Assembly (NCBI GenBank): GCA_022842065.1
Contig: JALHQH010000007.1
Coordinates: 116,115 to 180,114 of the forward strand
DNA: 64,000 nucleotides
Reading direction: 5' to 3'
Origin: Caldilineaceae bacterium
GTDB taxonomy: Bacteria; Chloroflexota; Anaerolineae; Caldilineales; Caldilineaceae
In this document: positions 8,834 through 63,511 of the stretch, piece by piece
Layout of the letters: every line of letters starts with the position of its first letter
How positions within the stretch are numbered: position 1 is the first letter of the stretch
Made by a program: the position numbers and the translations under genes
The notes under the pieces: generated by a model
What the model saw: the letters and a program-made list of their open reading frames with translations, nothing else
Databases searched by the model: none
What the model was told of the DNA's origin: nothing

Positions 8834-8889
8834 AGTATATCCCTAGGCGGTAACAGGCGGAATGCCAGAGCGGTAACAGATCGGTAACA
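8834..8889 (-). promoter_or_regulatory. TGTTACC-array promoter P1
   Basis: On the minus strand: TGTTACC at 8889-8883, TGTTACC at 8878-8872 (11 bp on), a degenerate copy at 8867-8861, TGTTACC at 8855-8849, then 9 bp and TATACT at 8839-8834. There is no good -35 box, so an activator probably replaces it. The geometry equals that of P2-P6. It drives the gene at 8413-8703. Confidence 0.85.
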
Positions 8890-8902
8890 AAGTCAGCTAT
8901 TT

Positions 8903-10408
8903 TCACCCAACATACGCTTCCAGCCCCAGGCGGACATATTGTTCCAGCGGGGCATCGTTGGCCTGCATGCGCGCCACCATCAGCTTGATCATGCGCTCCT
9001 CCAAGGCCGGATCTTGCAGTGGGTGTTGCTGCTGGGGGTCAGTAGCCAGATCAAAGAGCAAATGGCCAAAATCATGAGCACGGACCCAACTCTGGGCCGG
9101 GGTTTTGAGCAGCCCCATGCCTTTGGTAAAGGAGAAGGGTTCGACGAAGGTTGCGCCCTGTAATTCTTCCGCAATAAAGCGCCGCCGCATGCGAGTGGGC
9201 ATCAAGGTGTATTCATGCAACGGCGCGTTGTCCGGGTGGACCGGGGCGCGCATATAGACATAACGCCCATCGCTCACATTAACGTGGCCGCCATGAATCC
9301 CAAAGAGCACCGCCTCACGGGTCGGTGCGCCCGTGGCGACGGCCTCACGCAGGGGCTTCCCTTCCATCTGGGTCGGCAGCCCCACGCCAAAGAAATCGAG
9401 CAAGGTAGCCGGCAGATCGATCATTTGCGCCAAGCTATCGACCGCCGTGTTCCGCCGTTGACTGCGTGGATCCCAAATAAAAAGCGGGGTGCGCGCCAAC
9501 TCGGCATACCAGGGCTGGACCACCTTCGCCCACCACTCATGTTCACCGAGCAAAAAGCCATGGTCGGTGCAGACGATTAGCATAGTATCGTCCCAGAGGT
9601 TCAACTCATCCAGGAGATCAAGCACCTTGCCCAAATAGTCGTCACACATGGAGAGCAGCGCGGCATATTCATAGCGCATGTGCTGCACCGCCTCTGGCGA
9701 CTCTGTCACCCGGCTGTAGGGCGGCCAATCAAAGTGAGGGCCGGTATATTCGTGGGGATAGAGATCTTTGTATTGCTGTTGGGTGAAGAACGGCTCGTGG
9801 GGATCAAAGGTTTCGATTTGCAGGAACCACTGATCCGCCCCGGCGTTGGTGCGGATAAACTCTAGCCCATTTTTAAAGGTGCGCGGCTGTGGCTGATCCT
9901 CGACGGTCGTCATATAGGCACGGTTGACCCAATCCTGCCGCTCCATCACCTTGCGTGATTTGGATTGAAGTGTCCCCACCGGCGAAGCGCGGTTGGTCAA
10001 TGTGGCCGGGGTTTCAACTTCAGCAACCACCCCTTTCCAGTGGTCCCCTTCCTGGCCCCGCTCAAAATCCCAGGAGGTGTAGCGGTTGTGATAGGTCATG
10101 CCGCCATCTTCAAAGTAGTGGTAGTGATCGGTGGAAAGGTGGGTGTAGATCCCATGTTGATCGAGCAATTCAGGCATTGAGTCGTCAAATGGTTCAAGCG
10201 GTCCCCAGGCGCGATGCAGAAAATTATAGCGCCCGGTGTGCAACTCGCGGCGGGCAGGCATACAAGGCATACTGCCGATATAGCTGTTCTCAAAGCGGAC
10301 AGTGCGTTCGGCCAAACGGGCAAAGTTGGGGGCGTGGGTCCAGTCACAGCCATAGGGAGGCAACATGTGGCGATTGAGCGAGTCAAACATCAGCATGATG
10401 GCGCGCAT
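8903..10408 (-). CDS. sulfatase (formylglycine-dependent, alkaline phosphatase superfamily)
   Basis: Protein of 501 residues, usual for type I sulfatases, which hydrolyse sulfate esters to free sulfate. The metal-binding start is M-F-D-S-L-N-R at residues 7-13. The catalytic signature C-M-P-A-R at 49-53 fits C-x-P-x-R, in which Cys is converted to formylglycine. T-D-H-G-F-L-L-G-E-H later supplies metal ligands. No signal peptide is seen, so it probably acts in the cytoplasm on imported sulfate esters. AAAGGA lies upstream of the ATG. It lies downstream of the FAD oxidoreductase on the same strand and may share promoter P2 unless the two hairpins between them stop transcription. The maturase that makes formylglycine is not in the window. 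The exact substrate is unknown. Confidence 0.9.
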   Translation of the reverse strand: MRAIMLMFDSLNRHMLPPYGCDWTHAPNFARLAERTVRFENSYIGSMPCMPARRELHTGRYNFLHRAWGPLEPFDDSMPELLDQHGIYTHLSTDHYHYFEDGGMTYHNRYTSWDFERGQEGDHWKGVVAEVETPATLTNRASPVGTLQSKSRKVMERQDWVNRAYMTTVEDQPQPRTFKNGLEFIRTNAGADQWFLQIETFDPHEPFFTQQQYKDLYPHEYTGPHFDWPPYSRVTESPEAVQHMRYEYAALLSMCDDYLGKVLDLLDELNLWDDTMLIVCTDHGFLLGEHEWWAKVVQPWYAELARTPLFIWDPRSQRRNTAVDSLAQMIDLPATLLDFFGVGLPTQMEGKPLREAVATGAPTREAVLFGIHGGHVNVSDGRYVYMRAPVHPDNAPLHEYTLMPTRMRRRFIAEELQGATFVEPFSFTKGMGLLKTPAQSWVRAHDFGHLLFDLATDPQQQHPLQDPALEERMIKLMVARMQANDAPLEQYVRLGLEAYVG

Positions 10409-10478
10409 GAGCAGATCCTTTCGTGATGGCTAACCGATGAGGCAGCCAATGAGAAAAATATGAATAAGTAAAGCATGC

Positions 10479-10513
10479 AAAGACACACGAAGCATACTGC
10501 TTCGTGTGTCTTT
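10479..10513. repeat. 16-bp perfect hairpin upstream of the sulfatase gene
   Basis: Arms at 10479-10494 and 10498-10513 are perfect inverted copies with a 3-base loop. It is flanked by only short T/A runs, so it may weaken read-through from the FAD gene into the sulfatase gene or may simply be a repeat. Confidence 0.7.
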
Positions 10514-10576
10514 GGGGATGATTATTTTGTAATTACCCGCACAACTGTGCCTTATAGCGAAAGTAAATCGGGATAG

Positions 10577-10624
10577 CACGTTCGTGTACTGCGCATCGGG
10601 GGATGCGCAGTACACGAACGTGCC
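10577..10624. repeat. 22-bp-arm palindrome, dispersed family (also near 42731)
   Basis: Arms 10577-10598 and 10603-10624 are perfect inverted copies around GGGG. The core CTGCGCATC-N-GGGGATGCGCAG plus TACACGA recurs at 42731-42761, so this is a mobile or dispersed palindrome rather than a gene-specific terminator. Confidence 0.75.
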
Positions 10625-10644: not shown

Positions 10645-12177
10645 TTAGGCTAGTGCCAGTTCACGCACAGGCCACGTGGCAACTGGCAGCGGTTGCACTG
10701 CCGGTGCCAGTCGCCCAAGTAGTTGCTCGGCGACTGCCTCGGCCTGCTCACGCAGTTCCGGGACGGCGGTACATTCAAGCAATTCGCCTACCAACAGGGA
10801 ACCCAGCGGGTAAATCGCGCCGGGGGCATTGCCCGTGGCGCTCCCCTGGCGATCCGTTTCGACGCCAATCGCCAGCGGCCCCAGGGTGATCAATTCGCGG
10901 TTGCGTAGATTGGCCAGCAAGCCATCTTCGTCGGTGCTATCATAGGCCGGCCCCGTACAATTCAGGACGAGGGCGGCGTGGACAGTTACTTGTTCTGCAC
11001 TGTGACCAGGGCGATAGGCAAGCGTTAACCCCTGCGCGGTCGGTGTGATTTCGCAAACTTTGCCGGCCACTAATTTTAAGCGACCCACTTGTTGCAATGC
11101 CTCTAGCTGGTCATGGACTTCGTGCGCCATGCGGTGGCGATGCACATTCCACAAGGTAAAGAGGCGGCGCAAGAATTTGCGCTTTTCACCATTGTCAAGC
11201 CGTTTCCAGAGCGTCTGGGTTACGGGGCGCAGCGAGTCGATCACGCTACGCCAGTCGTAGCCCAAGGTGGCGGCGTGAGCAATTTCAGCGCGCAAGCCTT
11301 GGAACAACCCCAGCGCGGTTTGGGGGGCGGTTTCGGGATCAAGGGTCCAAGCCCAAGCGGGATAGGGTTTGCCGTGGGCATGGACCGCCGGCAACCAACC
11401 GTGGCGTGAGATCGCCGTGATCGACCCTTGGTAGCCGTGCGCTTGCAAGGTTAACACCGCATCGACCATGGTCAAGCCGGTGCCAACGATCACAATCTCG
11501 GCGTCGGGACCCAAGTCGGCCACGCGGTGGGGATAAAGCCCAGCGGGCTGTGGATGCCAGACATCGGCGACGAAATGGGCACCCACTTCATTGACTTGGG
11601 GTAGGAAGGCGGGGCGGCGGGCGCGATTGCCGGTGGCCAACACAAGCGCATCGACGGCAATTTGATCTTGGCGATTTTGAGCGGCGGCGGTGAGGATCAA
11701 GCGTTGATCAGGTTGCCGAGTGGGCTGGGCGTCGGTGATGGTAGCCTGGTGCAGGTGGACGGTGATACCTTTGGCTTTGGCCTTCTGCAATGTCTCGGCA
11801 AAAACCTGGCGTAGATAGCAGCCATAGAGTTGTCGCGGGGCATAACTATCTGCCTTCAGCGCAGTCGTCAGCCCGAGTTGAGTGATGGCTGCCTGCCCTG
11901 GCTCGCTCTGTAGCCAGCGGTAAAAACCATCGGGCTGGCCGGCAAAGGCCCCCATGCGCTCGGCCCGCACATTAAGCAAGTGGACCGTTTCCGTCGTACT
12001 GTAGGCAACCCCGGTGCCCGGAGTCTGCTCGGGTGCAAAGAGATCGACGACGAAACGATGATGGGCTTGTTCAACCAGGTTGGCAAGCACCAGGGTACCA
12101 CTAAAGCCACCACCAACAATCCCCACACGTTGCACTGGCTCATGCATGTGGTTTTTACAGTCCGGCAACTCATTCAT
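10645..12177 (-). CDS. FAD/NAD(P)-binding oxidoreductase (NAD_binding_9 type)
   Basis: Protein of 510 residues from the ATG at 12177, preceded by AAGGAG at 8 bp. A Rossmann dinucleotide motif V-G-I-V-G-G-G-F-S-G lies at the N-terminus, then G-V-A-Y-S-T and a second dinucleotide fold V-I-V-G-T-G-L-T-M-V-D-A mid-protein. These features match the FAD-NAD(P)-binding family often found beside sulfur-compound genes in environmental bacteria. The likely role is flavin-dependent oxidation or reduction of a small molecule in the cytoplasm. A longer in-frame start at 12279 (M-D-S-Q-R-R) also has a GGAG before it and would add 34 residues lying ahead of the fold. Promoter P2 lies upstream. The substrate is unknown. 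Confidence 0.8.
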   Translation of the reverse strand: MNELPDCKNHMHEPVQRVGIVGGGFSGTLVLANLVEQAHHRFVVDLFAPEQTPGTGVAYSTTETVHLLNVRAERMGAFAGQPDGFYRWLQSEPGQAAITQLGLTTALKADSYAPRQLYGCYLRQVFAETLQKAKAKGITVHLHQATITDAQPTRQPDQRLILTAAAQNRQDQIAVDALVLATGNRARRPAFLPQVNEVGAHFVADVWHPQPAGLYPHRVADLGPDAEIVIVGTGLTMVDAVLTLQAHGYQGSITAISRHGWLPAVHAHGKPYPAWAWTLDPETAPQTALGLFQGLRAEIAHAATLGYDWRSVIDSLRPVTQTLWKRLDNGEKRKFLRRLFTLWNVHRHRMAHEVHDQLEALQQVGRLKLVAGKVCEITPTAQGLTLAYRPGHSAEQVTVHAALVLNCTGPAYDSTDEDGLLANLRNRELITLGPLAIGVETDRQGSATGNAPGAIYPLGSLLVGELLECTAVPELREQAEAVAEQLLGRLAPAVQPLPVATWPVRELALA

Positions 12178-12309
12178 AGACAACTCCTTATCAACGCTTA
12201 CAGATGGGGAGAGCAGCTCTCCATAACGACCAACCGTCAACTTCCCGATGGCCCTTGCTTGGCGGCGTTGGGAATCCATGTAGGCTCCAGTCGTTGCGAT
12301 TGCCCTTTC

Positions 12310-12365
12310 ACAATAGCAGATGCTGGTAACAAGCATAGTGAGGGAGCTGTAACAGTCGGGTAACA
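12310..12365 (-). promoter_or_regulatory. TGTTACC-array promoter P2
   Basis: On the minus strand: TGTTACC at 12365-12359, TGTTACA at 12354-12348, a poor third copy, TGTTACC at 12331-12325, then 9 bp and TATTGT at 12315-12310. Spacings of 11 and 23 bp equal those of P1, P3, P4, P5 and P6. It heads the FAD oxidoreductase and perhaps the sulfatase. Confidence 0.8.
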
Positions 12366-18062: not shown

Positions 18063-19937
18063 CTAGCGCCCATGATTGCGCTGGAGCTTAAACAGCGCAG
18101 CGACGAGCGCATCAATATCTTCACAGGTGTTATACGGCGCAAGCGAGGCGCGCACGGTGCTCTCCACACCGAAGCGACGCAGGATCGGCTGCGCGCAGTG
18201 GTGGCCGGAACGCACGGCGATCCCGTCCTGATCCAAGGCCGCGCTCAGTTCCTCGGTGCGCAGCCCATCCACGACAAAGGAGATGACACCGGCTTTTTCT
18301 TTGGCCGTCCCAATCATGCATAGCCTCGGCACGGTGCAGAGTTGTGTCGTGGCGTATTGCAGCAGATCGTGCTCATACCAGCCGATCTGCTCAATGCCGA
18401 TTGACGAAACATAGTCCAAGGCAGCACCCAAACCAACCGCATCAGCAATATTGCCCGTGCCGGCCTCAAAGCGCGTCGGCGGCGGCTGATAGACGGTCTT
18501 TTCAAAGGTGACATCAGCGATCATGTTGCCGCCGCCCTGCCAGGGGGGCATACGCTCCAGCACCGCCTTTTTGCCATAGACCACGCCGATGCCGGTTGGC
18601 GCAAAGATCTTGTGCCCAGAGAAGATGTAGAAATCGGTGTTGATCGCCTGCACATCCTGGCGCATGTGGGAAACCGCTTGCGCGCCATCCACCAGCGTGC
18701 GTGCGCCATAACGATGGGCGGCGGCCACCATCGCCGGGACCGGTGTAATCGTGCCCAACGCGTTGGAAACCTGGGTGATGGCAACAAGTTTGGTGCGCGG
18801 GTTGAGCAGCTTTTCATACTCGGCCAAGATCACCTGGCCGCTGTCATCGACTGGGGCCACGCGCAGGCGCGCGCCTTTTTCCGCGGCAAGCTGTTGCCAC
18901 GGCACGATGTTGGCATGATGCTCCAGCCACGTAATCACAATCTCGTCGCCCTGGCCGATGTTTTGGCGACCCCAGCTTTGGGCCACCAGATTGATCGCTT
19001 CGGTGGCCCCGCGCACAAAGATGATCTCTTGTGGCGACGCCGCGTTGAGAAAGCGCTGCACTTTGGCGCGTGCCCCTTCGTAGGCGTCGGTCGCCCGCGC
19101 CGCCAGCGTATGGGCGGCGCGGTGGACATTTGAGTTCTCATGCTCATAGAAATACTTCAAGCGCTCGATGACCGCACGCGGCTTTTGCGTCGTGGCCGCA
19201 TTGTCCAGCCAGATCAGCCGCTTGCCATGGACCTGCTCTTGCAGAATCGGGAAATCGCGGCGGATCGCATAAGGGTCAAAAAGCTGCGGCGCAAAGTGCA
19301 GATCCGGCACCCGCGCCGGATTATAGCTCACCGACTCCGGGGGGAAGGTCAGCGTTTCAACGTGGAAAGGGGCAGTGCCCACCTGCGCACGCGCCAGCGC
19401 CTCTTCGATAAAATAGAGGCCACCGGTGGGTGAAACAGTGGACGGTGCTGGGGGCACAGTGGGCGCACTGAGCGCGTGCGGCACAAACGCCATCACCCCG
19501 CCAAAGGTCACCGGCACGGCACTCAGATCAGCCACATGGTGGGGTGACAGTCCCACCGCAGGGACCGGTGCCGATTGGCCCAAGGCAGCAGTGGGCAACT
19601 GGGTGGGCGCGATGGGTAAAGGTGCAGATAGCGCGGCCCCCGGTGGGGTTGCCGACGGCAGGGGCAACACACCAGTGCTGGCCGGCAGCGTGGGTGACAG
19701 CACGGGTGGCACCGGGGTGGGAGCGCTGGCATGGCCCGGCAGCGCGGCAAAAAACTGGTTGGCCAGTTGTGCGATCAGATCGAGTGCCGGCGCACTTCCG
19801 CTCAACGCCGCGAATGCGCCCTGCACATCGCCCGCGGCGGGGCCGGACGTCGCCAGTAATTCCGTTATCCCTGGGTTAGACCCTGCGTTAGGCCCTAAAT
19901 TAGACCCGGGCTGGGTACCAAGCTTAAGCGTAGTCAT
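18063..19937 (-). CDS. SufS-type cysteine desulfurase with long disordered N-terminal encapsulin-targeting region
   Basis: Protein of 624 residues, about 200 longer than ordinary SufS. Residues about 215-624 are the PLP desulfurase domain: H-K-I-F-A-P-T-G-I-G holds the PLP lysine and R-S-G-H-H-C-A-Q-P the persulfide Cys at 581. It removes sulfur from cysteine as enzyme-bound persulfide. The first 200 residues are Pro/Ala/Ser/Thr-rich with two islands that look conserved, L-D-L-I-A-Q-L-A-N-Q-F-F near residue 52 and G-L-Y-F-I-E-E-A-L-A near 175. This matches the cargo of family 2A encapsulins, where the N-terminal region directs loading. The ATG at 19937 overlaps the encapsulin gene by 14 bp, indicating coupled translation. 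Confidence 0.93.
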   Translation of the reverse strand: MTTLKLGTQPGSNLGPNAGSNPGITELLATSGPAAGDVQGAFAALSGSAPALDLIAQLANQFFAALPGHASAPTPVPPVLSPTLPASTGVLPLPSATPPGAALSAPLPIAPTQLPTAALGQSAPVPAVGLSPHHVADLSAVPVTFGGVMAFVPHALSAPTVPPAPSTVSPTGGLYFIEEALARAQVGTAPFHVETLTFPPESVSYNPARVPDLHFAPQLFDPYAIRRDFPILQEQVHGKRLIWLDNAATTQKPRAVIERLKYFYEHENSNVHRAAHTLAARATDAYEGARAKVQRFLNAASPQEIIFVRGATEAINLVAQSWGRQNIGQGDEIVITWLEHHANIVPWQQLAAEKGARLRVAPVDDSGQVILAEYEKLLNPRTKLVAITQVSNALGTITPVPAMVAAAHRYGARTLVDGAQAVSHMRQDVQAINTDFYIFSGHKIFAPTGIGVVYGKKAVLERMPPWQGGGNMIADVTFEKTVYQPPPTRFEAGTGNIADAVGLGAALDYVSSIGIEQIGWYEHDLLQYATTQLCTVPRLCMIGTAKEKAGVISFVVDGLRTEELSAALDQDGIAVRSGHHCAQPILRRFGVESTVRASLAPYNTCEDIDALVAALFKLQRNHGR

Positions 19938-20850
19938 AATATTGATCGACCTCAACCTCTTGCAAGACAGCAATGGCATCCTCGGTCAACACGGCAGCAG
20001 AGCAATAGAGCGAGATGAGATAGGAGGCAATCGCTTTGCGGTCGATGCCCATAAAGCGGACCGAAAGACTCGGTGCGACTTCGCCGGGAATGCCCGGCTG
20101 GAAGATCCCCACCACCCCCTGTTTTTTCTCGCCGGTGCGCAACAGTAAAATATCGGTCTTATTGCCGTTGATCTGCAGCTTGTCGGTTGGCACCAATGGT
20201 AGTCCGCGCCAGGTGAGGAAAGAGGAACCAAACAGGTTCACCGTGGGCGGCGGCACCCCGCGGCGGGTGCATTCGCGTCCAAAGGCGGCAATGGCCCGTG
20301 GGTGGGCCAGGAAGAAGGCAGGCTCTTTCCAAACTTTCGTGATCAGTTCGTCCAGATCATCAGGCGTGGGACGGCCTTTGCGTGGTTTAACTTTTTGGGT
20401 ATCGACCACATTATTTAGCAAGCCATAGCTCGGGTTATTGATCAGTTCGCCTTCCTGTTTTTCTTTGACTTTCTCAATCAACAGCCGCAATTGCTCTTGA
20501 ATCTGATCGATTGGTTTGCTATAGAGATCAGAAACGCGGGTCTGTACATCCAGCACCGTGGTGATCGCATTCAACGAATACTCGCGCGGCGCTTCTTCGT
20601 AATTAATAAAGGTTTCCGGTAGATCATTATTATTTTTGGGGCTGCATTCGACATCAGCGGTCACATTGCCTTTGGCATCCTTGACGCGATTAAGGCGATA
20701 AATACCGGCCTCAACCGGTGTCCACGGCAAGAAAGCGACCAGCCAGCGTGGGGTAATGCCTGACCATTGGGCATGCGTCTTAGTGGCGTTGGCCAGTTGG
20801 CGCGCCGCTTGCTCGCCCAATGTTTGGCGAACTTCAATCTCTTGCGTCAT
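19924..20850 (-). CDS. family 2A encapsulin shell protein (SrpI-like)
   Basis: Protein of 308 residues with the HK97-like fold of family 2A encapsulins, which self-assemble into a protein shell about 25 nm wide. Recognised stretches include A-A-R-Q-L-A-N-A-T-K-T, I-T-P-R-W-L, P-V-E-A-G-I-Y-R, F-F-L-A-H-P-R-A-I-A-A-F-G and L-P-L-V-P-T-D-K-L. I chose the ATG at 20850: AAGGA lies 9 bp before it, but touches the alternative ATG at 20859. The gene downstream, overlapping by 14 bp, encodes the long-tailed cysteine desulfurase, the known cargo type of this family; CysE and a cystathionine enzyme follow. The compartment is thought to store or buffer cysteine-derived sulfane sulfur under sulfur limitation. 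Confidence 0.92.
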   Translation of the reverse strand: MTQEIEVRQTLGEQAARQLANATKTHAQWSGITPRWLVAFLPWTPVEAGIYRLNRVKDAKGNVTADVECSPKNNNDLPETFINYEEAPREYSLNAITTVLDVQTRVSDLYSKPIDQIQEQLRLLIEKVKEKQEGELINNPSYGLLNNVVDTQKVKPRKGRPTPDDLDELITKVWKEPAFFLAHPRAIAAFGRECTRRGVPPPTVNLFGSSFLTWRGLPLVPTDKLQINGNKTDILLLRTGEKKQGVVGIFQPGIPGEVAPSLSVRFMGIDRKAIASYLISLYCSAAVLTEDAIAVLQEVEVDQYYDYA

Positions 20851-20975
20851 TGGATTCATTCCTTCGTTTGGTGATGATGTTAGATATTAATGGCAAAAAC
20901 TGGCCCGAAGTGGCCGGTCTACTATGCAGCAGCCTAAGTAAGACAGTAGGACAGTGAGTCACTGACTAGCGTTGG

Positions 20976-22379
20976 CTACACGCCGCGCTCGACGGCAACG
21001 GCCTGTGACCAGCGCTCAACCCCGTCGCGCAGATTGACCACGTTGTCGAAGCCGCGGCTGCGCAAGAGGCTGGTGGCGATCTGCGAGCGATAGCCGCTGG
21101 CACAGTGGAGCACGACGGTTCGATCCCGCGCGATCTCGTCAAGCCGCGTGAGCAATGAGCCGATGTGGATGTGACGCGCGCCCTTAATGCGCACGCTGTT
21201 GTATTCACTTTTGTTGCGGACATCCAGCACGACCAGGCCATTTTGGGGCAGACGCGTCGCCAGTTCCTCGGCACTCCACTCGGGCAACTGGGCGAGCCGC
21301 CCACTGACCACTACGGGCAGCGCATAGCCGCCGATCTGATCCACACCAATGCTGCGCAGTGCGTTGACCAAAGCTGGCACTGCCGCGGCCGCAGGGGCAA
21401 TGAAGTAAAGGGGCTTGGTATAGTCGACCAGCCAACCGACAAAGGTATTAAAGTCTTTGCGTTCAGGCACGCTGACCGAGCCTGGAATGTGGCCGGCCAC
21501 ATAATCCCTGCGGCTGCGCAGGTCAATAACCAAAGCCCCGCCGGCGATCAAGTCATCGATGGCAAGCCGGTCAAACGCTTTCAGCGGCGGTAGTTCAGCC
21601 AGTAGCGCCGGACCGATTTTGTTCACCTGCTTCATCTGCGCAAAGTAGCGCGGCGCTTCGGGCTGGTCCGCTAGCAACCACTTGGCAAAGGCCGCCGCGT
21701 CGTCGATCTGAAAGGCGGGGTTGAAGCGTTTTTCATAGCCTAGCGTGGTCGATGGGATGGCGCCGAGCGCTTTGCCACAGGCGCTACCCGCGCCATGCGC
21801 CGGCCAGATTTGCAGATAATCGGGCATGGCCTTAAAACGCTGGACCGTCTCGAATTGGCGTTGTGCGCCGGCAACAGCCGTACCGGCCAGCCTCGCAACA
21901 GCCTCAAGTAGATCAGGACGCCCCACATCACCCACAAAGAGGGCATCCCCGGTAAAGATGCCGATGGGCTGATCCGCGTTGGCCGTGTCGGTAAGCAGAA
22001 ACGCAATATGTTCCGGGGTGTGTCCTGGGGTATGAAGCACTTCGACTTTGATTTTCCCCACCAGCCAACGCGTCTGATCTCGGACCAGCGTCACATTTGG
22101 TTGATTGGCAAATTGATATTTCCAGTTAGCATCACCCAGGTCGCTGAGAAAAATAGTGGCACCAGTGGCGGCGGCCAACTCGCGGCTGCCGCTGACAAAG
22201 TCCGCATGAATATGCGTCTCGGTGACGTGGGTAATGCACAGCCCTGCCTGTTCGGCCGCGGCCAAATAAGGGGCAATGTCGCGCGCCGGGTCAACCACCA
22301 GTGCTTCCCCCGTTTTGGCACAGCCAACCAGATACGAAGCCTGCGCCAGCCGCTCATCATAAAAATAGCGTAACAACAT
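20976..22379 (-). CDS. MBL-fold hydrolase fused to two rhodanese domains (persulfide dioxygenase-like)
   Basis: Protein of 467 residues. Residues 1-240 are a metallo-beta-lactamase fold with T-H-I-H-A-D-F at 55-61, G-H-T-P-E-H and F-T-G-D-A-L-F-V-G-D-V-G-R-P-D-L, the signature of ETHE1-like sulfur dioxygenases. Residues about 275-360 are a rhodanese domain that lacks the active Cys (L-Y-F-I-A-P where Cys should be). Residues about 375-467 are a second rhodanese domain with the active loop H-C-A-S-G-Y-R-S and Cys426. The family oxidises glutathione- or protein-persulfides to sulfite and moves sulfane sulfur. It is just upstream of the encapsulin gene, so it could receive or dispose of sulfur released by the compartment. 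Reaction inferred from family only. Confidence 0.9.
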   Translation of the reverse strand: MLLRYFYDERLAQASYLVGCAKTGEALVVDPARDIAPYLAAAEQAGLCITHVTETHIHADFVSGSRELAAATGATIFLSDLGDANWKYQFANQPNVTLVRDQTRWLVGKIKVEVLHTPGHTPEHIAFLLTDTANADQPIGIFTGDALFVGDVGRPDLLEAVARLAGTAVAGAQRQFETVQRFKAMPDYLQIWPAHGAGSACGKALGAIPSTTLGYEKRFNPAFQIDDAAAFAKWLLADQPEAPRYFAQMKQVNKIGPALLAELPPLKAFDRLAIDDLIAGGALVIDLRSRRDYVAGHIPGSVSVPERKDFNTFVGWLVDYTKPLYFIAPAAAAVPALVNALRSIGVDQIGGYALPVVVSGRLAQLPEWSAEELATRLPQNGLVVLDVRNKSEYNSVRIKGARHIHIGSLLTRLDEIARDRTVVLHCASGYRSQIATSLLRSRGFDNVVNLRDGVERWSQAVAVERGV

Positions 22380-22719: not shown

Positions 22720-22775
22720 AGTCTATCACCGTAAGGTAACAAGGTTGGTTCCAAGCTGATAACAAGCTGGTAACA
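22720..22775 (-). promoter_or_regulatory. TGTTACC-array promoter P3
   Basis: On the minus strand: TGTTACC at 22775-22769, TGTTATC at 22764-22758, degenerate TGGAACC at 22753-22747, TGTTACC at 22741-22735, then 9 bp and TAGACT at 22725-22720. It drives the encapsulin/cysteine desulfurase operon. Confidence 0.85.
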
Positions 22776-34863: not shown

Positions 34864-34865
34864 AA

Positions 34866-35402: not shown

Positions 35403-35451
35403 TAATTCCTCCCTGCTCTCTAAAAACTGGTTATTGTAGAGGTAATCGTAC

Positions 35452-39336: not shown

Positions 39337-40283
39337 TGTTGACTCCCGTTGGTTGCGCCCAACCGCACCCGTGGATCAAGCAAGCCGTAACTAATGTCAG
39401 TTAGTAGATTGACAATAACAAACGCTACCCCAGCCAGCAGGACATAGGCCCCGATCACAGGCAGGTCACGCCCAGAGATCGCCGCAATCAGGGCGGTACC
39501 CATGCCCGGCCAGGCAAAAATGGTCTCGATGACAATCGCCCCAGCCAAGAGCTGGCCAAACCGCAAGCCCAATACGGTGACAATTGGGAGCAAGGCATTT
39601 GGCAGGGCATGACGCAGGGTAACAATCCGCCCAGCCAATCCTTTGGCGCGCGCGGTGCGAATATAATCCAGCCGCCAGACCTCGATCACCGCACTACGGG
39701 TGAGACGCATCAGGCCTGCCGCCGGCCCGGCGGATAAGGCAAGAACGGGCAGAATCAGGTAACGCGGTCCGCCATAACCGGCCGGCGGCAAGCTATGCAG
39801 GATCTCGGCGAACAAAGTAATGAGCAACAGCGCCAACCAGAATGATGGGACTGCGGCCAGCAACAACGTTAGCCAACGCCCAGCTACATCCAGGAATGAA
39901 CCGGCCGTGAGCCCAAAGACTAGGCCTAACCCAATGCCAACTACGGTGGTAAAGGTGAAGGCAGTTAGCCCCAGGCGCAAGGTTGGCTCGATCCGTTCGC
40001 GGATAATGTCGTTGACAGTGCGCGCCGAAAGAAACGACGTACCCAGGTCACCGCGAGTCAACCCCACCAACCAGCGCCCATAGCGCACCAGAAAGGGGTC
40101 ATTCAAGCCAAGTTTTTCGCGGTAGGCGGCAATCGCTTCGACCGTGGGTTCTTGCCCCCCGGCGCGCAGTGCGATTTCAGCCGGATCGCCACGCGCGGCG
40201 GTCGTCAGAAAAAAGGCCGCCAGGGTGAGGAATAAGAGCGTCGGCAACATGACCGCCACGCGCCCTAGAATATAACTGCCCAT
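39333..40283 (-). CDS. peptide-type ABC permease, DppB-like
   Basis: Protein of 316 residues from ATG 40283 with GGGGAG 6 bp upstream; a longer frame to 40424 would add 47 residues outside the fold. Six membrane helices are predicted, and Y-I-R-T-A-R-A-K-G-L with R-H-A-L-P-N-A-L-L-P-I is the DppB-type EAA loop. It is the first full gene after promoter P4 and the Cys-rich leader at 40524-40685. It partners the next two genes. Confidence 0.93.
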   Translation of the reverse strand: MGSYILGRVAVMLPTLLFLTLAAFFLTTAARGDPAEIALRAGGQEPTVEAIAAYREKLGLNDPFLVRYGRWLVGLTRGDLGTSFLSARTVNDIIRERIEPTLRLGLTAFTFTTVVGIGLGLVFGLTAGSFLDVAGRWLTLLLAAVPSFWLALLLITLFAEILHSLPPAGYGGPRYLILPVLALSAGPAAGLMRLTRSAVIEVWRLDYIRTARAKGLAGRIVTLRHALPNALLPIVTVLGLRFGQLLAGAIVIETIFAWPGMGTALIAAISGRDLPVIGAYVLLAGVAFVIVNLLTDISYGLLDPRVRLGATNGSQQ

Positions 40284-40523
40284 GCATTGCTCCCCAATAA
40301 ATTTTGTCTGTACAGTTCTTGGGCAGTCGCTTTCCGCCCAGCCAGCCAGTGCCAGGATAAAAAGTGCCCATGATTGAGATGAAGCGTGGCTGAGAACGCG
40401 GGTTACCAGCGGTTGATTATCCAAGGTCGGTCAGCAGCATGGGTCATGGTGTTGGTTGTCCCAACGAGGACACACAACAGCGCTAACTTGAATTGCTGAC
40501 TTTGGACAGAGCGCAGGTTCCCG

Positions 40524-40685
40524 CTACCTACAGCAGCAGCGCGCATGCCGTGGCTGATCACATGCCAGACAGCCGGGAGGACAACAACAGGAGGTCGAAC
40601 AGTTGCGGTGGATGATGAAGGATTGGGGAAAAGCCGCATAGAAAAAAGGTGAATGAGTAGATTGACAACGACTGATTGACATCAT
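40524..40685 (-). CDS. cysteine-rich leader peptide (10 Cys in 53 residues) after promoter P4
   Basis: The frame starts at one of two adjacent ATGs (40685 or 40682) after AAAGGGGGA, and has 53 codons ending in TAG at 40524-40526. Ten codons are Cys, including T-S-C-C-C-P-P and a closing H-A-R-C-C-C-R. The start is about 36 bp after the predicted transcription start. The 3' end TGCTGCTGTAGGTAGCGGG is almost the same as in the 63314-63397 leader. Runs of Cys codons just ahead of sulfur genes are the hallmark of attenuation by charged tRNA-Cys. About 240 bp of further leader separate it from the DppB-like gene; I see no clear T-run terminator there. Confidence 0.8.
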   Translation of the reverse strand: MMSISRCQSTHSPFFYAAFPQSFIIHRNCSTSCCCPPGCLACDQPRHARCCCR

Positions 40686-40727: not shown

Positions 40728-40783
40728 ACTATACCAGCCCTTGGTAACAGGCGTAGTGGCAAGGGCGTAACAGTCAAGTAACA
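40728..40783 (-). promoter_or_regulatory. TGTTACC-array promoter P4
   Basis: On the minus strand: TGTTACT at 40783-40777, TGTTACG at 40772-40766, a degenerate third copy, TGTTACC at 40749-40743, then 9 bp and TATAGT at 40733-40728. It heads the leader peptide at 40524 and the 17-kb unit 4. Confidence 0.85.
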
Positions 40784-50271: not shown

Positions 50272-50307
50272 AAATAAAAAGCGCCACCGCGCGAATCCGG
50301 TGACGCT
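50272..50307 (-). terminator. intrinsic terminator in the leader of unit 5 (attenuator)
   Basis: Read on the minus strand, a 10-bp stem (arms 50307-50298 and 50289-50280, one G-U pair) is followed by TTTTTATTT. It lies about 145 bp after the Cys-rich leader peptide and 87 bp before the OsmC start codon, inside the same transcript. Its position makes it the likely attenuator. Confidence 0.8.
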
Positions 50308-50449
50308 TCTACAACTGACCAACCTAAAAATTGAGACTTGGTCACTGCTTGCACCGCATTCCGTTAGGAAGTAAAGCGGAAGCAGTGTGGGCCAATGTTA
50401 TCTCGTTGCTGTCATGCTACCAACGCGGTTGGTAAGCCAGAGATACAGG

Positions 50450-50512
50450 TCACTGCCTCCGCTCTCTACATGGACAACAACAAGTTAAGTGGTCTAAGTC
50501 TGGTGAAAACAT
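50450..50512 (-). CDS. cysteine-rich leader peptide after promoter P5
   Basis: Twenty codons from ATG 50512 to TGA 50450-50452, with C-C-C-P-C-R at residues 11-16, encoded by TGTTGTTGTCCATGTAGA. The start lies about 60 bp after the predicted transcription start. There is no strong ribosome site. The following TGTAGAGAGCGG matches the TGTAGNKAGCGG seen at the end of the leaders at 40524-40685 and 63314-63397. An intrinsic terminator follows at 50272-50307. It is too short for a functional protein and fits a leader for cysteine attenuation. Confidence 0.75.
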   Translation of the reverse strand: MFSPDLDHLTCCCPCRERRQ

Positions 50513-50580
50513 ATTGATAGAGTTGGTTGCTACCGATGGTTGGTAAGTTACGCCTGCCAGTGGCGTTGGCATGCTAGCTT

Positions 50581-50636
50581 AGCATAACAGGTGATCGTAA
50601 CAAGCATGGTGCGCATCCCGTAACAACGAGGTAACA
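50581..50636 (-). promoter_or_regulatory. TGTTACC-array promoter P5 (minus strand)
   Basis: On the minus strand: TGTTACC at 50636-50630, TGTTACG at 50625-50619, a degenerate third copy, TGTTACG at 50602-50596, then 9 bp and TATGCT at 50586-50581. It drives the leader at 50450 and the OsmC-to-aldolase unit. It lies back to back with P5' on the plus strand. Confidence 0.82.
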
Positions 50637-50663: not shown

Positions 50664-50718
50664 TGTTACCAACTTGTTACACGCCTGTGGCCGTTTTGTG
50701 ATGGACATCGCCTATACT
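50664..50718 (+). promoter_or_regulatory. TGTTACC-array promoter P5' (plus strand)
   Basis: TGTTACC at 50664, TGTTACA at 50675, TGTGGCC at 50686, TGTGATG at 50697, then 9 bp and TATACT at 50713-50718. Here all four half-sites are 11 bp apart; in the other promoters the last gap is 12. It drives the small membrane protein at 50807-51127. Confidence 0.82.
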
Positions 50719-50806: not shown

Positions 50807-51127
50807 ATGTTATTCGAAATTCTATTTTCTGTGGGTGCAGCAGTGCTAACCCTGGCCATGCTCCTGACGATCATCTACTACACTCTCTTTACGCCCCCGG
50901 TAAAAGTACCAAGCACCGCAGTGCAAACCCAACCGGGGGAACCAACCTTCGATGATGACATGGCCTACCTGGTTTTCTCCATGTATCCCTATCACGAGTA
51001 TGTTCATTTTCCCGCCATGCCGATGAACTTGGGACAACCGGATGCAACACAACCGCCCCAAGCCTATAATCAGCTCGCAATGCCGCCCTTTACACTCGAA
51101 CGGCAGGATGCCCCCCAACTCGCCTAA
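50807..51127 (+). CDS. small single-pass membrane protein with Y-V-H-F-P-A motif (paralogue 2)
   Basis: Protein of 106 residues with no Cys. Residues 3-28 form a transmembrane helix; then comes a Pro/Thr-rich linker, D-D-D-M-A-Y and S-M-Y-P-Y-H-E-Y-V-H-F-P-A at about 58-71, followed by a Pro/Gln-rich tail. Paralogue 1 at 8413-8703 shares the layout and the Y-P-x-x-x-Y-V-H-F-P-A core. AAGGAGG is placed ideally before the ATG. The gene is alone on the plus strand, opposite unit 5, and has its own TGTTACC promoter. No known family is recognised; the conserved His, Tyr and Pro residues hint at a binding motif outside the membrane. Confidence 0.87.
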   Translation: MLFEILFSVGAAVLTLAMLLTIIYYTLFTPPVKVPSTAVQTQPGEPTFDDDMAYLVFSMYPYHEYVHFPAMPMNLGQPDATQPPQAYNQLAMPPFTLERQDAPQLA

Positions 51128-54409: not shown

Positions 54410-55663
54410 TTATTGGCCCACGGCCAGTTGGAGGAACGTGGGATTGGCACCTTGCTGGAAGACTTCCAGATCGGGCGCAGTCGTGAGTACGCCCTGCTCG
54501 ACCAGGAAATCGGCAGTGGTTTTGAAGGCCTCGCCCAAAGCACCTGGTGTGTCGGTCGTGCCGAAATAGTCAGGGCTGATCTGCTCGGCAGCGGTGAGCC
54601 AGATGAGACCGGCGGCTTGCGTCGCGGCTTCCGCCGGGGTGATGCCCAATTCGGTAGCAATCAGTTCGGCAGCCTGCGCCGGGTCACTGCGATAGAGGTC
54701 AACGCCTTTCGAGAGATTTTGCAGATAGACTGCCACGACTTCGGGGTATTGGCTGGAAAAGTCGCGGGTCGCTACGGCCACATCAAAGGTGGGGAAGCCC
54801 TGCGCGGCGACCTCATCGCTACCAATCAGTTTGGTGCCGCCGTCGTCGTAGAGCTTCTGCAAGGTGGGTTGCCAGACATAGGCCGCGTCGATGTCACCGC
54901 GCGTCCAGGCCGCCAACAGGTCAGAGGGATTAAAATCGAGCAAGGTCACTTCATCCTGCCCAATGTTGTTAAGTTTGAGCACTTGCAACAAGGAATAGTG
55001 CGTGGTTGAGCCAAAGGGTGCAGCCAATGTCTTGCCTTTGAGATCGGCAAAGGTCGCAATCGAATCGCGCACAGCCAACGCCTCGCTGTCACCGATGACG
55101 TCGTAAAAGGCAATGACATCATAGGGCAAACCCTGGGCTAAACCGGCGGCAGCAGGGCTACTCCCGACCAGACCAATGTCAATGCTGCCGCTGGCAATCG
55201 CCGTGTTAACATCACGACCGCTCTCGAATTGGCGCCATTCAATCGTCGTTCCTAACGCCTGTTCATGCCACTGTAATTGTTTGGCGATCAATTCCGCATT
55301 TGGAATTGCCTGGTAGCCGATGCGCACCACATCAGGTTTGTTCGTGATCGTGATGGTTGGATAGCTGCTACTCGACGCGGCGCTATCGGTTGTGGTCGCA
55401 GTAGCGGTTGTAGCCTCAGTGGCGGTTATTGGCTCGGTGGCGGTCACGCTTTCGGTCGCGGTAACGGCGGACGTGGTCGTGACAGCAGTTGTATCGGTCA
55501 CCGGTGCTGCGGCCGGCGCTTCAGTTGGGGCGGTCGTCGCGACTGGTGCGGTTGGTGGCGCAGTCGGTGCGTCACTGCCACAACTGGCGAGCAGCAGCGC
55601 CAAGAGCAGGGTAAAGAGCAAGAGCAGTACAGTGGTCATTTTTGCGCTAAATCGCTGAAACAT
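54410..55663 (-). CDS. ssuA: sulfonate-type ABC substrate-binding lipoprotein
   Basis: Protein of 417 residues from ATG 55663 (GGAG 8 bp upstream); a longer frame runs through the tRNA-Cys gene and is not real. Lipobox L-A-S-C near residue 28, then a Thr/Ala-rich linker of about 75 residues with repeating T-A-T-E. The binding domain has V-R-I-G-Y-Q-A-I-P-N-A, S-I-D-I-G-L-V-G-S-S-P and the L-K-G-K-T-L-A-A-P-F-G-S family pattern of SsuA/TauA. The long linker is longer than in typical members. Confidence 0.93.
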   Translation of the reverse strand: MFQRFSAKMTTVLLLLFTLLLALLLASCGSDAPTAPPTAPVATTAPTEAPAAAPVTDTTAVTTTSAVTATESVTATEPITATEATTATATTTDSAASSSSYPTITITNKPDVVRIGYQAIPNAELIAKQLQWHEQALGTTIEWRQFESGRDVNTAIASGSIDIGLVGSSPAAAGLAQGLPYDVIAFYDVIGDSEALAVRDSIATFADLKGKTLAAPFGSTTHYSLLQVLKLNNIGQDEVTLLDFNPSDLLAAWTRGDIDAAYVWQPTLQKLYDDGGTKLIGSDEVAAQGFPTFDVAVATRDFSSQYPEVVAVYLQNLSKGVDLYRSDPAQAAELIATELGITPAEAATQAAGLIWLTAAEQISPDYFGTTDTPGALGEAFKTTADFLVEQGVLTTAPDLEVFQQGANPTFLQLAVGQ

Positions 55664-55710
55664 AGAAATTTCTCCAGAAACTTTTGTGAATAACACGAAA
55701 TTAAAACGAG

Positions 55711-55782
55711 AGGCGACGGCCGGATTCGAACCGGCGCATAAGGATTTTGCAGATCCCGGCCTTACCACTTGGCGACGTCGCC
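55711..55782 (-). tRNA. tRNA-Cys (GCA)
   Basis: On the minus strand GGCGACG at 55782-55776 pairs with CGTCGCC at 55718-55712, forming the acceptor stem, with U as discriminator. The anticodon loop is CTGCAAA, giving anticodon GCA. The T arm reads GCCGGTTCGAATCCGGC. CCA is not encoded. It lies 48 bp before the ssuA start codon, in the same direction as unit 6 genes, so it could be cut from their transcript or have its own promoter. Confidence 0.95.
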
Positions 55783-55967
55783 GTACATAGAGTGGGGGAT
55801 TGCCCGGGATGACGGGTGACGTCAGTGCCCGGGCCGGACCAAAAGAAGAAGAAGAGAAGAACTGAGGCCGGAACAACGAGCAGGCTCCCCAACCGCTCGT
55901 TGCCCCCCACACGGTCGGATCGGCGAATCCGGCGTTGAAGGGGATACCTGCGTCATAGCAACTCACC
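55783..55967. other. gap with no feature found
   Basis: I see no coding sequence or strong signal between the tRNA and the C-rich repeat. A small palindrome lies near 55804-55838 (GCCCGGG repeats). Confidence 0.5.
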
Positions 55968-61371: not shown

Positions 61372-61372
61372 T

Positions 61373-62563: not shown

Positions 62564-62651
62564 GTCCGTTGCTCTTTCGATTACAGGTTGATAAAATCAA
62601 GCAGCGCAGAGTGCGCGTTTGTGTGCTTTTCAGCGAGCGACCAGCTCACCG

Positions 62652-63047
62652 TCAGGGCGAGGCAGTCGCTTCATCAGTACCGTTGCTGACGGGTAACGCC
62701 GCGGCCACCCAGCCATTAAGCCCACCCGCCACGGAAACCACATTGGTGTAGCCCATCTTTTGCAAGCTCTCGGCGGCCAGGGCACCACGGTTACCACCGC
62801 TGCAATAACAGATAATCGGGGTTGCGAGATCGGGGGCCAGCGTTTCGATTTGGCTTTCCAAAACACCTCGGCTGAGGTGCACAGCCGCCGGAATATGGGC
62901 AGCGGTAAACTCTTTTTCCTCGCGCACATCGATCACGACCGCGCCGGTCGCCTGTTGCGTGGCCGCCTCTGCTGGTGTGATCTCTGTAATACGCGTCTTG
63001 GCATCGGCGGCTAATTTCAAGAAGCGCTCAGAATGGTGCTGGCTCAT
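62652..63047 (-). CDS. single-domain rhodanese
   Basis: Protein of 131 residues. The active loop C-Y-C-S-G-G-N-R-G has the likely catalytic Cys at residue 82; G-Y-T-N-V-V-S-V-A-G-G-L-N-G-W closes the fold. The G-Y-x-N-V-x-x-L/V-x-G-G pattern is typical of GlpE/PspE-like rhodaneses. It shuttles sulfane sulfur in the cytoplasm. It is the first protein-coding gene of unit 6, following promoter P6 and a very Cys-rich leader. Confidence 0.93.
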   Translation of the reverse strand: MSQHHSERFLKLAADAKTRITEITPAEAATQQATGAVVIDVREEKEFTAAHIPAAVHLSRGVLESQIETLAPDLATPIICYCSGGNRGALAAESLQKMGYTNVVSVAGGLNGWVAAALPVSNGTDEATASP

Positions 63048-63313
63048 GGTTTTTCCTCGCTCCTACTTTGGGCAATAACAATACAACGCGAGCAATAGCA
63101 CAGAGTGCAGCCAAAAGGTCAGCTTGCCGCCCAGCAGACAACATATAGGGTAATGCAGAGTTTGGCCGGACGTAACGAAAATGGTTGATGAGACGCGGGC
63201 AGCGCGCTGTCAAGCGTAATCTGCGTTTGCTTTAACTTACCCAGGCGCTAATCATCGCTTTTGCGAACTTAGACGCGCCAGCCACAAACGCAATCTACAC
63301 AGGCGGGCGCCCG

Positions 63314-63397
63314 CTAGCTACAGCAGCAGGCCCGACGCACAGCGCAGGCAGAGGAACAACAATAGGAGGTACAACAAGGGCAGGTATGGAAAATCAT
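63314..63397 (-). CDS. cysteine-rich leader peptide (9 Cys in 27 residues) after promoter P6
   Basis: The ATG at 63397 opens a 27-codon frame ending in TAG at 63314-63316. Nine codons are Cys: T-C-P-C-C-T-S-Y-C-C near the start, A-C-A, and the closing R-R-A-C-C-C-S. The end TGCTGCTGTAGCTAGCGGG matches the leader at 40524-40685 at both DNA and peptide level. It starts about 52 bp after the expected transcription start. There is no strong ribosome site. The 266 bp between its stop and the rhodanese gene have possible competing stems (TGCGTTTG at 63285-63292 pairs with CAAACGCA at 63222-63229), but no clear T-run terminator. Confidence 0.8.
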   Translation of the reverse strand: MIFHTCPCCTSYCCSSACAVRRACCCS

Positions 63398-63455
63398 AAA
63401 AATCAATTTAAACTAGTTGACAAAATGCGCAACAGAATTTTATTGCATGATGGAT

Positions 63456-63511
63456 AGTATACGCCATGCTGGTAACAGCACTGGTTATACGCCGATAACA
63501 AGCTGGTAACA
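63456..63511 (-). promoter_or_regulatory. TGTTACC-array promoter P6
   Basis: On the minus strand: TGTTACC at 63511-63505, TGTTATC at 63500-63494, degenerate TATAACC next, TGTTACC at 63477-63471, then 9 bp and TATACT at 63461-63456. It drives the leader and unit 6. Confidence 0.87.

What the first reader, a model, noticed from the sequence alone, without database searches (positions are those of the whole stretch)
8834..63511. Seven promoters share one rigid TGTTACC direct-repeat operator: a sulfur-linked regulon with a PHO-box-like geometry
Sites at 8834-8889, 12310-12365, 22720-22775, 40728-40783, 50581-50636, 63456-63511 (all minus) and 50664-50718 (plus) have TGTTACC, then another at +11, a degenerate copy at about +22, a last copy at +34 (33 in the plus-strand site), and exactly 9 bp later a TATACT-like -10 box with no -35. 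The six minus-strand spacings are identical (11 and 23 bp). Direct repeats one helical turn apart, replacing the -35 and ending 9-10 bp before the -10, are the binding mode of OmpR/PhoB winged-helix regulators. Here they precede sulfur-acquisition units, so an unidentified response regulator probably controls them. The base matches are read from the sequence; the regulator type is inference.
Basis: partly seen in the sequence, partly recalled or inferred. Interest (0 to 1): 0.93.

Follow-up and report, generated by a model that had tools for sequence, protein, structure and literature searches.

The report
Sulfur-starvation switch in Chloroflexota bacteria
Seven promoters in a sulfur-scavenging gene island of a likely Chloroflexota bacterium carry the same four-copy DNA repeat; in related genomes this repeat sits beside one two-component regulator whose DNA-reading helix changes in step with the repeat, so that regulator is predicted to switch these genes on when sulfur is short, and at least one operon also carries a predicted second, cysteine-sensing brake.

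Summary
In detail: all seven sites are where stated, and a 20-base description of them has 6 exact window matches against 0 in 100 shuffles. The 56-bp form is specific to Chloroflexota: 33 of 34 exact matches in about 85,000 species genomes. One clade of OmpR/PhoB-type response regulators is present in 26 of 27 Chloroflexota genomes with the operator, within 8 kb of a site in 22 of 27. Members with helix LKQL-x-YRLR go with TGTTACC repeats; members with LRQL-x-[RH]RLR go with TGTCACA repeats of the same geometry. Targets in relatives include sulfate and sulfonate uptake, tRNA-Cys and a Pst-like transporter; one branch is hydrogenase-linked. The island itself holds tRNA-Cys, and three operator leaders hold cysteine-rich leader peptides; one folds in silico as a complete cysteine attenuator, with two relatives in another species. 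Binding, activation, signal and attenuation are untested inferences; the window's own regulator was not seen, and a phosphate or general-stress role is not excluded.

The parts
8834..8889 (-). Operator 1, then small membrane-protein ORF 8413-8703
12310..12365 (-). Operator 2, 30 nt before FAD/NAD(P)-binding protein 10645-12279, sulfatase 8903-10408 follows
22720..22775 (-). Operator 3, before MBL-rhodanese, encapsulin, cargo desulfurase, CysE-like and Cys/Met PLP genes
40728..40783 (-). Operator 4, before ABC transporter / SfnB-like unit 34282-40424
50581..50636 (-). Operator 5, before OsmC and rhodanese; divergent from operator 6
   Evidence: divergent pair also in G016 (L131)
50664..50718 (+). 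Operator 6 (plus strand; last copy degenerate, at +33)
   Evidence: not matched by the strict pattern
63456..63511 (-). Operator 7, before rhodanese 62652-63047 and a LIV-type ABC unit
50450..50572 (-). Cys-rich leader ORF (4 Cys), ending in segment A of the attenuator (50450-50462)
50348..50387 (-). Attenuator segments B (50376-50387) and C (50348-50362)
   Evidence: in silico
50278..50310 (-). Attenuator terminator hairpin D:E with T run
   Evidence: hairpin of -20.3 kcal/mol; relatives with both-side changes at 3 of 12 pairs; generic terminator scan found none
40524..40685 (-). Cys-rich leader ORF behind operator 4 (10 Cys in 53 codons), purine-rich start region
   Evidence: 19 of 300 shuffles reach its Cys clustering
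63314..63406 (-). Cys-rich leader ORF behind operator 7 (9 Cys in 30 codons)
   Evidence: 48 of 300 shuffles reach its Cys clustering
55710..55782 (-). tRNA-Cys (GCA) inside the island
   Evidence: ARAGORN, Rfam tRNA 61 bits
8413..8703 (-). Small membrane-like ORF, weak paralogue of 50807-51127
   Evidence: 27% over 89 aa, E=1e-5; no Pfam match
50807..51127 (+). Small membrane-like ORF under operator 6
   Evidence: 36% homologue under an operator in G016
18063..20859 (-). Family 2A encapsulin shell and cysteine desulfurase cargo, downstream of operator 3
   Evidence: NCBIfam over cut-offs

Best explanation
The seven sites likely are operators of one Chloroflexota sulfur-limitation regulon, and an OmpR/PhoB-type response regulator with the recognition helix LKQL-x-YRLR, found beside the same operator in related genomes, likely binds the TGTTACC copies and would activate these promoters when sulfur is short. 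By analogy with PhoB, tandem dimers would bind the copies, take the place of the missing -35 box and hold RNA polymerase on the -10. Two helix positions probably read two bases of each repeat: Tyr goes with T and Arg/His with C at base 4; Lys goes with C and Arg with A at base 7. Behind the operators a second layer is predicted, made of cysteine-rich leader peptides. In the 50581 leader a ribosome that reaches the stop codon would leave B paired with C, so the terminator forms; a ribosome stalled at the first Cys codons would let A pair with B and C with D, so transcription runs on into the OsmC operon. Shown by calls: sites, neighbours, co-variation, leader ORFs and alternative pairings in silico. 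Inferred: binding, activation, the sulfur signal, attenuation, and that the window's own genome encodes this regulator.
For: 33 of 34 exact 56-bp-form matches are in Chloroflexota. Regulator clade in 26 of 27 of those genomes and in none of 4 genomes without strict sites; site within 1 kb of it in 17 of 27, within 8 kb in 22 of 27. In 346 class genomes: operator 18, clade 37, both 13, p=2e-10; leaving out 7 operator-chosen genomes 11, 31 and 7 of 339, p=7e-6. Helix and operator change together: n=21 sites by Y-type regulators (base 4 T 58/63, base 7 C 32/42), n=8 by R/H-type (base 4 C 23/24, base 7 A 15/16). Sulfate ABC, Ssu genes and tRNA-Cys at the operator in other genomes; tRNA-Cys in the island. 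Cys leader peptides and switchable pairing.
Against: No regulator is in the window and its genome is not held. Helix types fall in few branches of the tree, so the co-variation may rest on two or three changes. G174 has a Y-type helix without operator; G017 has the operator and only a 43-residue regulator-like fragment; 5 of 18 operator genomes in the class draw have no clade member. The operator also precedes Pst-like and hydrogenase-like operons. The generic terminator scan found none in the 50581 leader, a stall at the last Cys codon does not flip the fold, and in one of the two G016 leaders the predicted switch does not change C:D. Cys clustering per leader is modest against shuffles. G002 and G027, two of the tRNA-Cys cases, are close relatives.
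Confidence: 0.72

Rival explanations
1. The operator is the PHO box of Chloroflexota: a PhoB/RegX3-type regulator answers phosphate shortage, and sulfur genes are side targets.
For: Same layout as E. coli pstS; closest solved regulator is RegX3; Pst-like operons follow the operator in many genomes and a Na/Pi-cotransporter family protein in G010.
Against: Other pst operons in the five genomes with PstC over cut-off (G016, G020, G027, G028, G345) lie on contigs without operator matches. The operator-linked PstS scores under both PstS cut-offs and lacks Ser/Thr residues of the aligned phosphate-protein motifs. Sulfate and sulfonate genes and tRNA-Cys are at the operator; the island has no phosphate genes that I recognised.
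Confidence: 0.13
2. The regulator family answers a general nutrient or energy signal; sulfur is one output among transport and hydrogenase outputs, and the signal is not sulfur itself.
For: A hydrogenase/Nuo-linked regulator branch and a branch before an unknown protein share the operator; universal stress protein and MshEN domains recur in the targets.
Against: Regulators linked to Cys, Ssu and Pst-like operons form their own branch (support 100/95); the window and G016 targets are mostly sulfur genes; all 3 tRNAs found at these loci are tRNA-Cys.
Confidence: 0.2
3. In the window organism a different, unrelated regulator uses these repeats.
For: The window shows no response regulator and its genome cannot be searched.
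Against: Adjacency in 22 of 27 genomes and helix-operator co-variation.
Confidence: 0.05
4. The cysteine-rich leader ORFs are chance and the leaders are plain 5' untranslated regions.
For: Modest shuffle statistics: 2 to 48 of 300 shuffles reach the observed clustering in the three leaders; no Rfam family; no terminator in the generic scan.
Against: 3 of the 4 such intergenic ORFs in the window sit directly behind operators; G016 has two related leaders with Cys codons in register, conserved segments and a co-varying hairpin.
Confidence: 0.25

Closest known systems
PhoB / pho box of E. coli (pstS promoter)
   Same: Four copies at 0, 11, 22 (degenerate) and 33, -10 at +16 from the last copy
   Different: Repeat TGTTACC instead of TGTCAT, last spacing mostly 34, helix differs, targets largely sulfur genes
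SenX3-RegX3 and MtrA (actinobacterial OmpR-type regulators)
   Same: Closest solved relatives of the regulator, 167 and 164 bits
   Different: Different recognition helix and operator; sulfur-linked neighbours
M. tuberculosis PhoP and S. coelicolor PhoP operators (PMC4832192, passages read)
   Same: 7-bp direct repeats with 4-bp spacer
   Different: Two copies described there, other repeat sequence
Cysteine leader peptides of Mycobacterium, P. acnes, B. longum (PMC1262725, passages read; Canestrari 2020 seen only as a reference in PMC9031893)
   Same: Short ORFs with runs of Cys codons near the stop, before sulfur genes
   Different: In Mycobacterium no conserved terminator hairpins were found; here the 50581 leader and two G016 leaders have alternative hairpins and a terminator, and an operator upstream
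NblS-NblR of cyanobacteria (PMC2491639, passages read)
   Same: Two-component system tied to nutrient limitation
SrpI encapsulin / cysteine desulfurase of S. elongatus (PMC8049743, search listing only)
   Same: Shell 67% identical, cargo over cut-off
   Different: Placed behind this operator here; two relatives with cargo at 70% and 61% identity lack the operator

Membership tests
OmpR/PhoB-type response regulator with operator | Receiver plus Trans_reg_C winged-helix domains | tested here: met
   PF00072 and PF00486 in both helix types, in relatives only
OmpR/PhoB-type response regulator with operator | Partner histidine kinase next door | tested here: met
   HisKA/HATPase_c proteins beside it
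OmpR/PhoB-type response regulator with operator | Direct-repeat operator one helical turn apart, in place of -35 | tested here: met
OmpR/PhoB-type response regulator with operator | Regulator binds these repeats | not testable with these tools
   Adjacency and co-variation only
OmpR/PhoB-type response regulator with operator | Encoded in the window's own genome | not testable with these tools
   Genome not held
Phosphate (Pho) regulon | Operator precedes the ordinary pst operons | tested here: not met
   Five genomes: other pst operons on contigs without operator matches
Phosphate (Pho) regulon | Phosphate-type binding protein at the operator | tested here: inconclusive
   PstS family match under cut-off, pocket motifs changed
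Classical transcription attenuator (trp type) | Leader peptide with codons for the sensed amino acid | tested here: met
   Cys clusters in register in three leaders
Classical transcription attenuator (trp type) | Mutually exclusive hairpins that switch with ribosome position | tested here: inconclusive
   Clear in the window leader with a stall at the earlier Cys codons, partial in one G016 leader, no C:D change in the other
Classical transcription attenuator (trp type) | Intrinsic terminator before the structural gene | tested here: inconclusive
   Hairpins of -20 to -23 kcal/mol with T runs in 3 of 3 leaders; generic scan found none in the window leader

The most novel reading that the evidence does not exclude
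A dedicated two-component system for sulfur and cysteine shortage runs through the Anaerolineae, with a two-residue, two-base recognition code that has rewritten regulator and operator together; in the window's branch it is stacked with trp-style cysteine attenuators and takes tRNA-Cys into the same regulon, so that both the sulfur supply and the tRNA that reports cysteine are under one switch.
Probability: 0.5. Interest if true: 0.88.

Novelty: new variant of a known kind. Interest (0 to 1): 0.82.

Why it matters
The sulfur regulons that I can recall use one-component regulators; a two-component system for sulfur genes would be unusual, and no title or abstract in my listings described one, though most of those papers were not opened and subscription journals are mostly not held. 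The matched change of helix and operator gives a directly testable recognition code for the OmpR/PhoB family, with a natural two-regulator, two-box case inside one genome (G018). Two stacked layers, promoter activation and cysteine-codon attenuation, with tRNA-Cys in the island, would be a compact model of how a bacterium tells outside sulfur from cysteine status. It also offers a handle on sulfur genes, and perhaps on the anion carried by the Pst-like transporter, in a group with few genetic tools.

Tried and rejected
PHO-box reading: followed first because PstS-like genes appeared; set back and by tRNA-Cys, but kept as a rival. Encapsulin as a guide to relatives: the two best cargo relatives (G157, 70%; G295, 61%) have no operator, so the encapsulin does not track the regulon. 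Cys+Met sparing: island proteins median 2.0% (n=46) against 2.8% in 81 called ORFs of G016, p=0.0007; the background is another species, so I give it no weight. Cys clustering by shuffling: weak per leader. Rfam has no family for the leaders at gathering cut-offs. A relaxed window scan (up to 6 of 20 mismatches) found one further place, at the start of gene 20976-22379, which I take as chance. The A-B hairpin pattern was found in 1 of 46 family genomes, G016. A class label in the script is mis-indexed: it prints KR and RR where the rows show Lys with Tyr, and Arg with Arg or His; I used the rows. In one search the script's printed copies start at the wrong TGTCAT; the right ones were printed.

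Literature: searches listed nothing on this operator, on two-component control of a sulfur-gene operator, or on cysteine attenuation in Chloroflexota; I judged by titles and abstracts and opened passages of four papers only.
Full report
WHAT IS THERE. All seven sites are present as described. The 20-base description TGTTACN5TGTTAN18TGTTACN10TANNNT has six matches in the 64 kb, all exact, with up to 3 mismatches allowed, and none in 100 shuffles. The seventh, plus-strand site keeps the first two copies and the -10 but has a degenerate last copy at +33. A scan with up to 6 mismatches gives one further place, at the start of a gene. The window is a sulfur-scavenging island: sulfatase, family 2A encapsulin with its cysteine desulfurase cargo, rhodaneses, OsmC, a Sulf_transp protein, an ATC hydrolase, luciferase-like monooxygenases (one an alkanesulfonate monooxygenase over its cut-off) and several ABC systems. 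Its own genome is not held, and no response regulator was seen among the proteins scanned. That the organism is a Chloroflexota is inferred from the relatives below.

WHERE THE OPERATOR OCCURS. A scan of genome contigs (84,980 species genomes) with 17 or 18 bases in the long gap gave 45 matches in 44 stretches. Of the 34 with the window's 56-bp form, 33 are in Chloroflexota records and one in an AT-rich Ignavibacteria contig. Of the 11 with the 55-bp form, 3 are in Chloroflexota records. In columns that the pattern left free, the 33 sites show a third copy TGTnACC at +22 and mostly C at base 7. For 22 of the 33 a same-strand ORF start lies within 130 bp and for one at 263 bp; for 10 it was over 400 bp away or not seen in the locus held; 2 sites lie inside a called ORF (simple ORF caller).

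THE REGULATOR. Reading the neighbourhoods showed the same OmpR-type response regulator and kinase at many sites. Used as a query against 31 genomes, the G016 regulator finds its clade at 52-75% identity (E<=1e-68), with a gap to the other paralogues listed (48% and below, E>=1e-54). The clade is in 26 of the 27 genomes that gave 56-bp sites; the exception, G017, has only a 43-residue regulator-like fragment near its site. It is absent from the four genomes of that call without strict operator matches (G021, G024, G157, G295). A site lies within 1 kb of the clade gene in 17 of the 27 genomes, within 2.1 kb in 19 and within 8 kb in 22; in the other five no clade gene was seen on the site's stretch.

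A draw of 346 genomes of the class gave the operator (up to 2 mismatches) in 18, the reversed-pattern control in 1, and the clade (E<=1e-60) in 37; both in 13 (Fisher p=2e-10). Seven of the 346 had been found through the operator; without them the counts are 11, 31 and 7 of 339 (p=7e-6), and in four of those 11 (G064, G096, G345, G352) the site lies 27-170 bp from the regulator. Five of the 18 operator genomes had no clade member (G017, G105, G199, G333, G364); with two mismatches some chance hits are expected. In the 46 genomes of G016's family the operator is in 6.

HELIX AND OPERATOR CHANGE TOGETHER. Clade members beside TGTTACC operators have the recognition helix LKQL[VIM]YRLR; most members in genomes without that operator have LRQL[VM][RH]RLR or close forms. 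Looking near those for any direct repeat of the same geometry showed TGTCACA-N4-TGTCACA, a TCACA-type third copy and TGTCA[CT] at +34, in front of sulfate ABC operons and MshEN or Pst-like operons. A scan with base 4 left free over 71 genomes (57 with the clade, 14 without) found sites in 43 of 57 and 1 of 14; the reversed control found none. For sites within 1 kb of a Y-type regulator (n=21), base 4 of copies 1, 2 and 4 is T in 58 of 63 and base 7 of copies 1 and 2 is C in 32 of 42. For sites within 1 kb of an R/H-type regulator (n=8) the figures are C in 23 of 24 and A in 15 of 16. Two genomes with Lys plus Arg (G063, G266) have TGTCACC-type boxes with a 33-bp last spacing, with T at base 4 in one copy of G063. 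That separates the two positions: Lys/Arg with base 7, Tyr/Arg with base 4. Genome G018 has both kinds, each with its own box, at 18 bp and 6.1 kb.

Of the 37 clade-bearing genomes of the class, 10 of 11 with the Y-type helix have the TGTTACC operator against 3 of 26 others (p=8e-6); without operator-chosen genomes 4 of 5 against 3 of 26 (p=0.005). Misfits: G174 (Y-type, no operator) and G165 (diverged helix ending YRLR, none). The tree puts the helix types in few branches, so the co-variation may rest on two or three changes; sequences are not independent. In the mycobacterial PhoP-DNA structure (PMC4832192, passages read) the residue that I align with our Lys/Arg contacts the bases that pair with motif positions 6 and 7, and the residue that I align with our Tyr/Arg bonds a backbone phosphate at position 5. 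That alignment is mine, by eye.

WHAT IT CONTROLS ELSEWHERE. In G016, sites precede SsuE-SsuD-SsuC (76% identity to the window's SsuD and SsuC) directly beside the kinase-regulator pair, an OsmC gene (86% over 69 residues at a contig end), and CysA-Usp genes, one of them followed by Sbp; in G020 one site precedes an SsuE-like gene on a contig with homologues of window genes at 34-40 kb and 50 kb at 62-87% identity. The divergent operator pair between OsmC and a small ORF is seen in both the window and G016. In G002, G003, G011 and G017, and in the R/H-type genomes G137, G156, G237, G269, G303 and G328, a box lies before a CysA-Usp gene, in most of them with Sbp and CysT/W nearby. In L150 Sbp and the two permeases score over their subfamily cut-offs; CysA-Usp does not. 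A Pst-like operon follows the operator in many genomes, but its PstS scores under cut-off with changed motifs, and the other pst operons of the five genomes checked lie on contigs without operator matches. In a separate regulator branch the operator precedes pentapeptide and Nuo/hydrogenase-like clusters, and in another an unknown protein.

ARAGORN found 3 tRNAs in 88 regulator and operator loci (some overlap), all tRNA-Cys: 11 nt after an operator's -10 place in G002, 51 nt after one in G027 (both sites with one -10 mismatch, close relatives), and about 0.1 kb from the regulator gene in G028. In 36 comparison loci, mostly shorter, it found one, tRNA-Gln. The window's only tRNA is tRNA-Cys, at 55710-55782. 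In G016 a tRNA-Cys-like stretch follows the operator at L135:6596 by my reading, but neither ARAGORN nor Rfam calls it.

THE SECOND LAYER. Four operators (22720, 40728, 50581, 63456) have 303-408 nt before the first called gene. Three of these leaders hold short ORFs rich in cysteine: 10 of 53, 4 of 40 and 9 of 30 codons. In the 7,624 intergenic bases of the window (my gene list) there is one other such ORF, at 63-134; 14 more overlap genes. The 22720 leader has a weaker candidate that shuffles match easily. The 50581 leader aligns with two G016 leaders behind operators (L131 OsmC, and L134:8089). All three peptides end in a Cys cluster and a basic end that runs into an almost invariant GCGGAG[GA]CAGTGA holding the stop codon, then CAC[TC]GCTTCCGC, then a hairpin with a T run. 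A Cys codon lies 8 nt before segment A in all three. Duplex energies are A:B -19 to -28, B:C -11 to -18.5, C:D -12 to -18 and D:E -21 to -23 kcal/mol.

Folding the transcript before E with a ribosome footprint at the stop gives 12.7 expected B:C and 0.1 C:D pairs in the window leader; with the footprint at the earlier Cys codons it gives 13.8-14.7 A:B and 13.6 C:D. That is the right sense for relief by cysteine shortage. A stall at the last Cys codon does not flip it, and without any ribosome B:C wins. The same test gives C:D 3.1 to 6.0 in one G016 leader and no C:D change (11.0 to 11.1) in the other. The hairpin has both-side changes at 3 of 12 pairs among the three sequences. Against it: the generic terminator scan found none, and Cys clustering in single leaders is modest against shuffles.

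MECHANISM. Shown: sites, geometry, neighbours, co-variation, leader ORFs and pairings in silico. Inferred: the regulator binds the repeats as tandem dimers and activates from the -35 position as PhoB does; the signal is sulfur or cysteine shortage; ribosome stalling at Cys codons releases the second brake; the window organism encodes the Y-type regulator. The G016 kinase beside the Ssu genes has HAMP at residue 88 against 285 in the G027 kinase, so it lacks about 200 residues ahead of HAMP, and its signal may be read inside the cell.

COMPARISON AND NOVELTY. The operator works like a pho box: E. coli pstS has copies at 0, 11, 22 and 33 and its -10 at +16 from the last copy. It is not filed in the phosphate regulon, because the operator is missing from the other pst operons checked. 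Cysteine leader peptides are known in Actinobacteria; in Mycobacterium no conserved terminator hairpin was found (PMC1262725 passages). Two-component systems have been tied to nutrient acclimation in cyanobacteria (PMC2491639 passages). I rate the whole a new variant of a known kind: known regulator family, known attenuation principle, with new targets, a new operator code and a new combination.

Noticed in passing
window 7737-8219 and 8151-8195 (-): Abi_2-domain ORF fragment with an Rfam abiF RNA match just over its cut-off (37.2 against 37 bits), at the edge of the island.
   Followed up: no
window 1647-4574 (-): 975-aa protein with HTH, NB-ARC/NACHT-like and TPR matches next to the island; possibly a signalling or defence protein.
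   Followed up: no
window 54410-55966 (-): The called ORF of the SsuA-like protein runs over the tRNA-Cys gene at 55710-55782; the true start is probably downstream of the tRNA.
   Followed up: partly
L026, L034, L037, L044: Sulfurovum/Nitratifractor contigs hold the 55-bp form with TGTTACC- or TGTTACA-type tandem copies; a separate, Campylobacterota operator may exist.
   Followed up: no
L150:7902-9839, L145:9936-11069: Operator-linked CysA-like ATPase fused to a universal stress domain, and a MshEN-Usp protein: possible nucleotide-controlled transporters.
   Followed up: partly
L002:208-1254 and homologues: PstS-like protein with Ser/Thr of the aligned phosphate-protein motifs replaced (GAFALFP, GAGKGM); it may carry another oxyanion.
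   Followed up: partly
L007, L013, L028, L033: A family of about 200-aa proteins of unknown kind behind the operator in one regulator branch; the L007 member has no Pfam match.
   Followed up: no
L133:2627-2682 (-): An exact site points away from the G016 kinase-regulator genes with no clear target gene; it may serve autoregulation or an RNA.
   Followed up: no
window 8413-8703 (-) and 50807-51127 (+): Two weakly related small membrane-like ORFs, each directly under an operator, with a homologue under an operator in G016.
   Followed up: partly
L075 (G157) and L076 (G295): Relatives with encapsulin-type cysteine desulfurase cargo at 70% and 61% identity but neither operator nor regulator clade.
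   Followed up: partly
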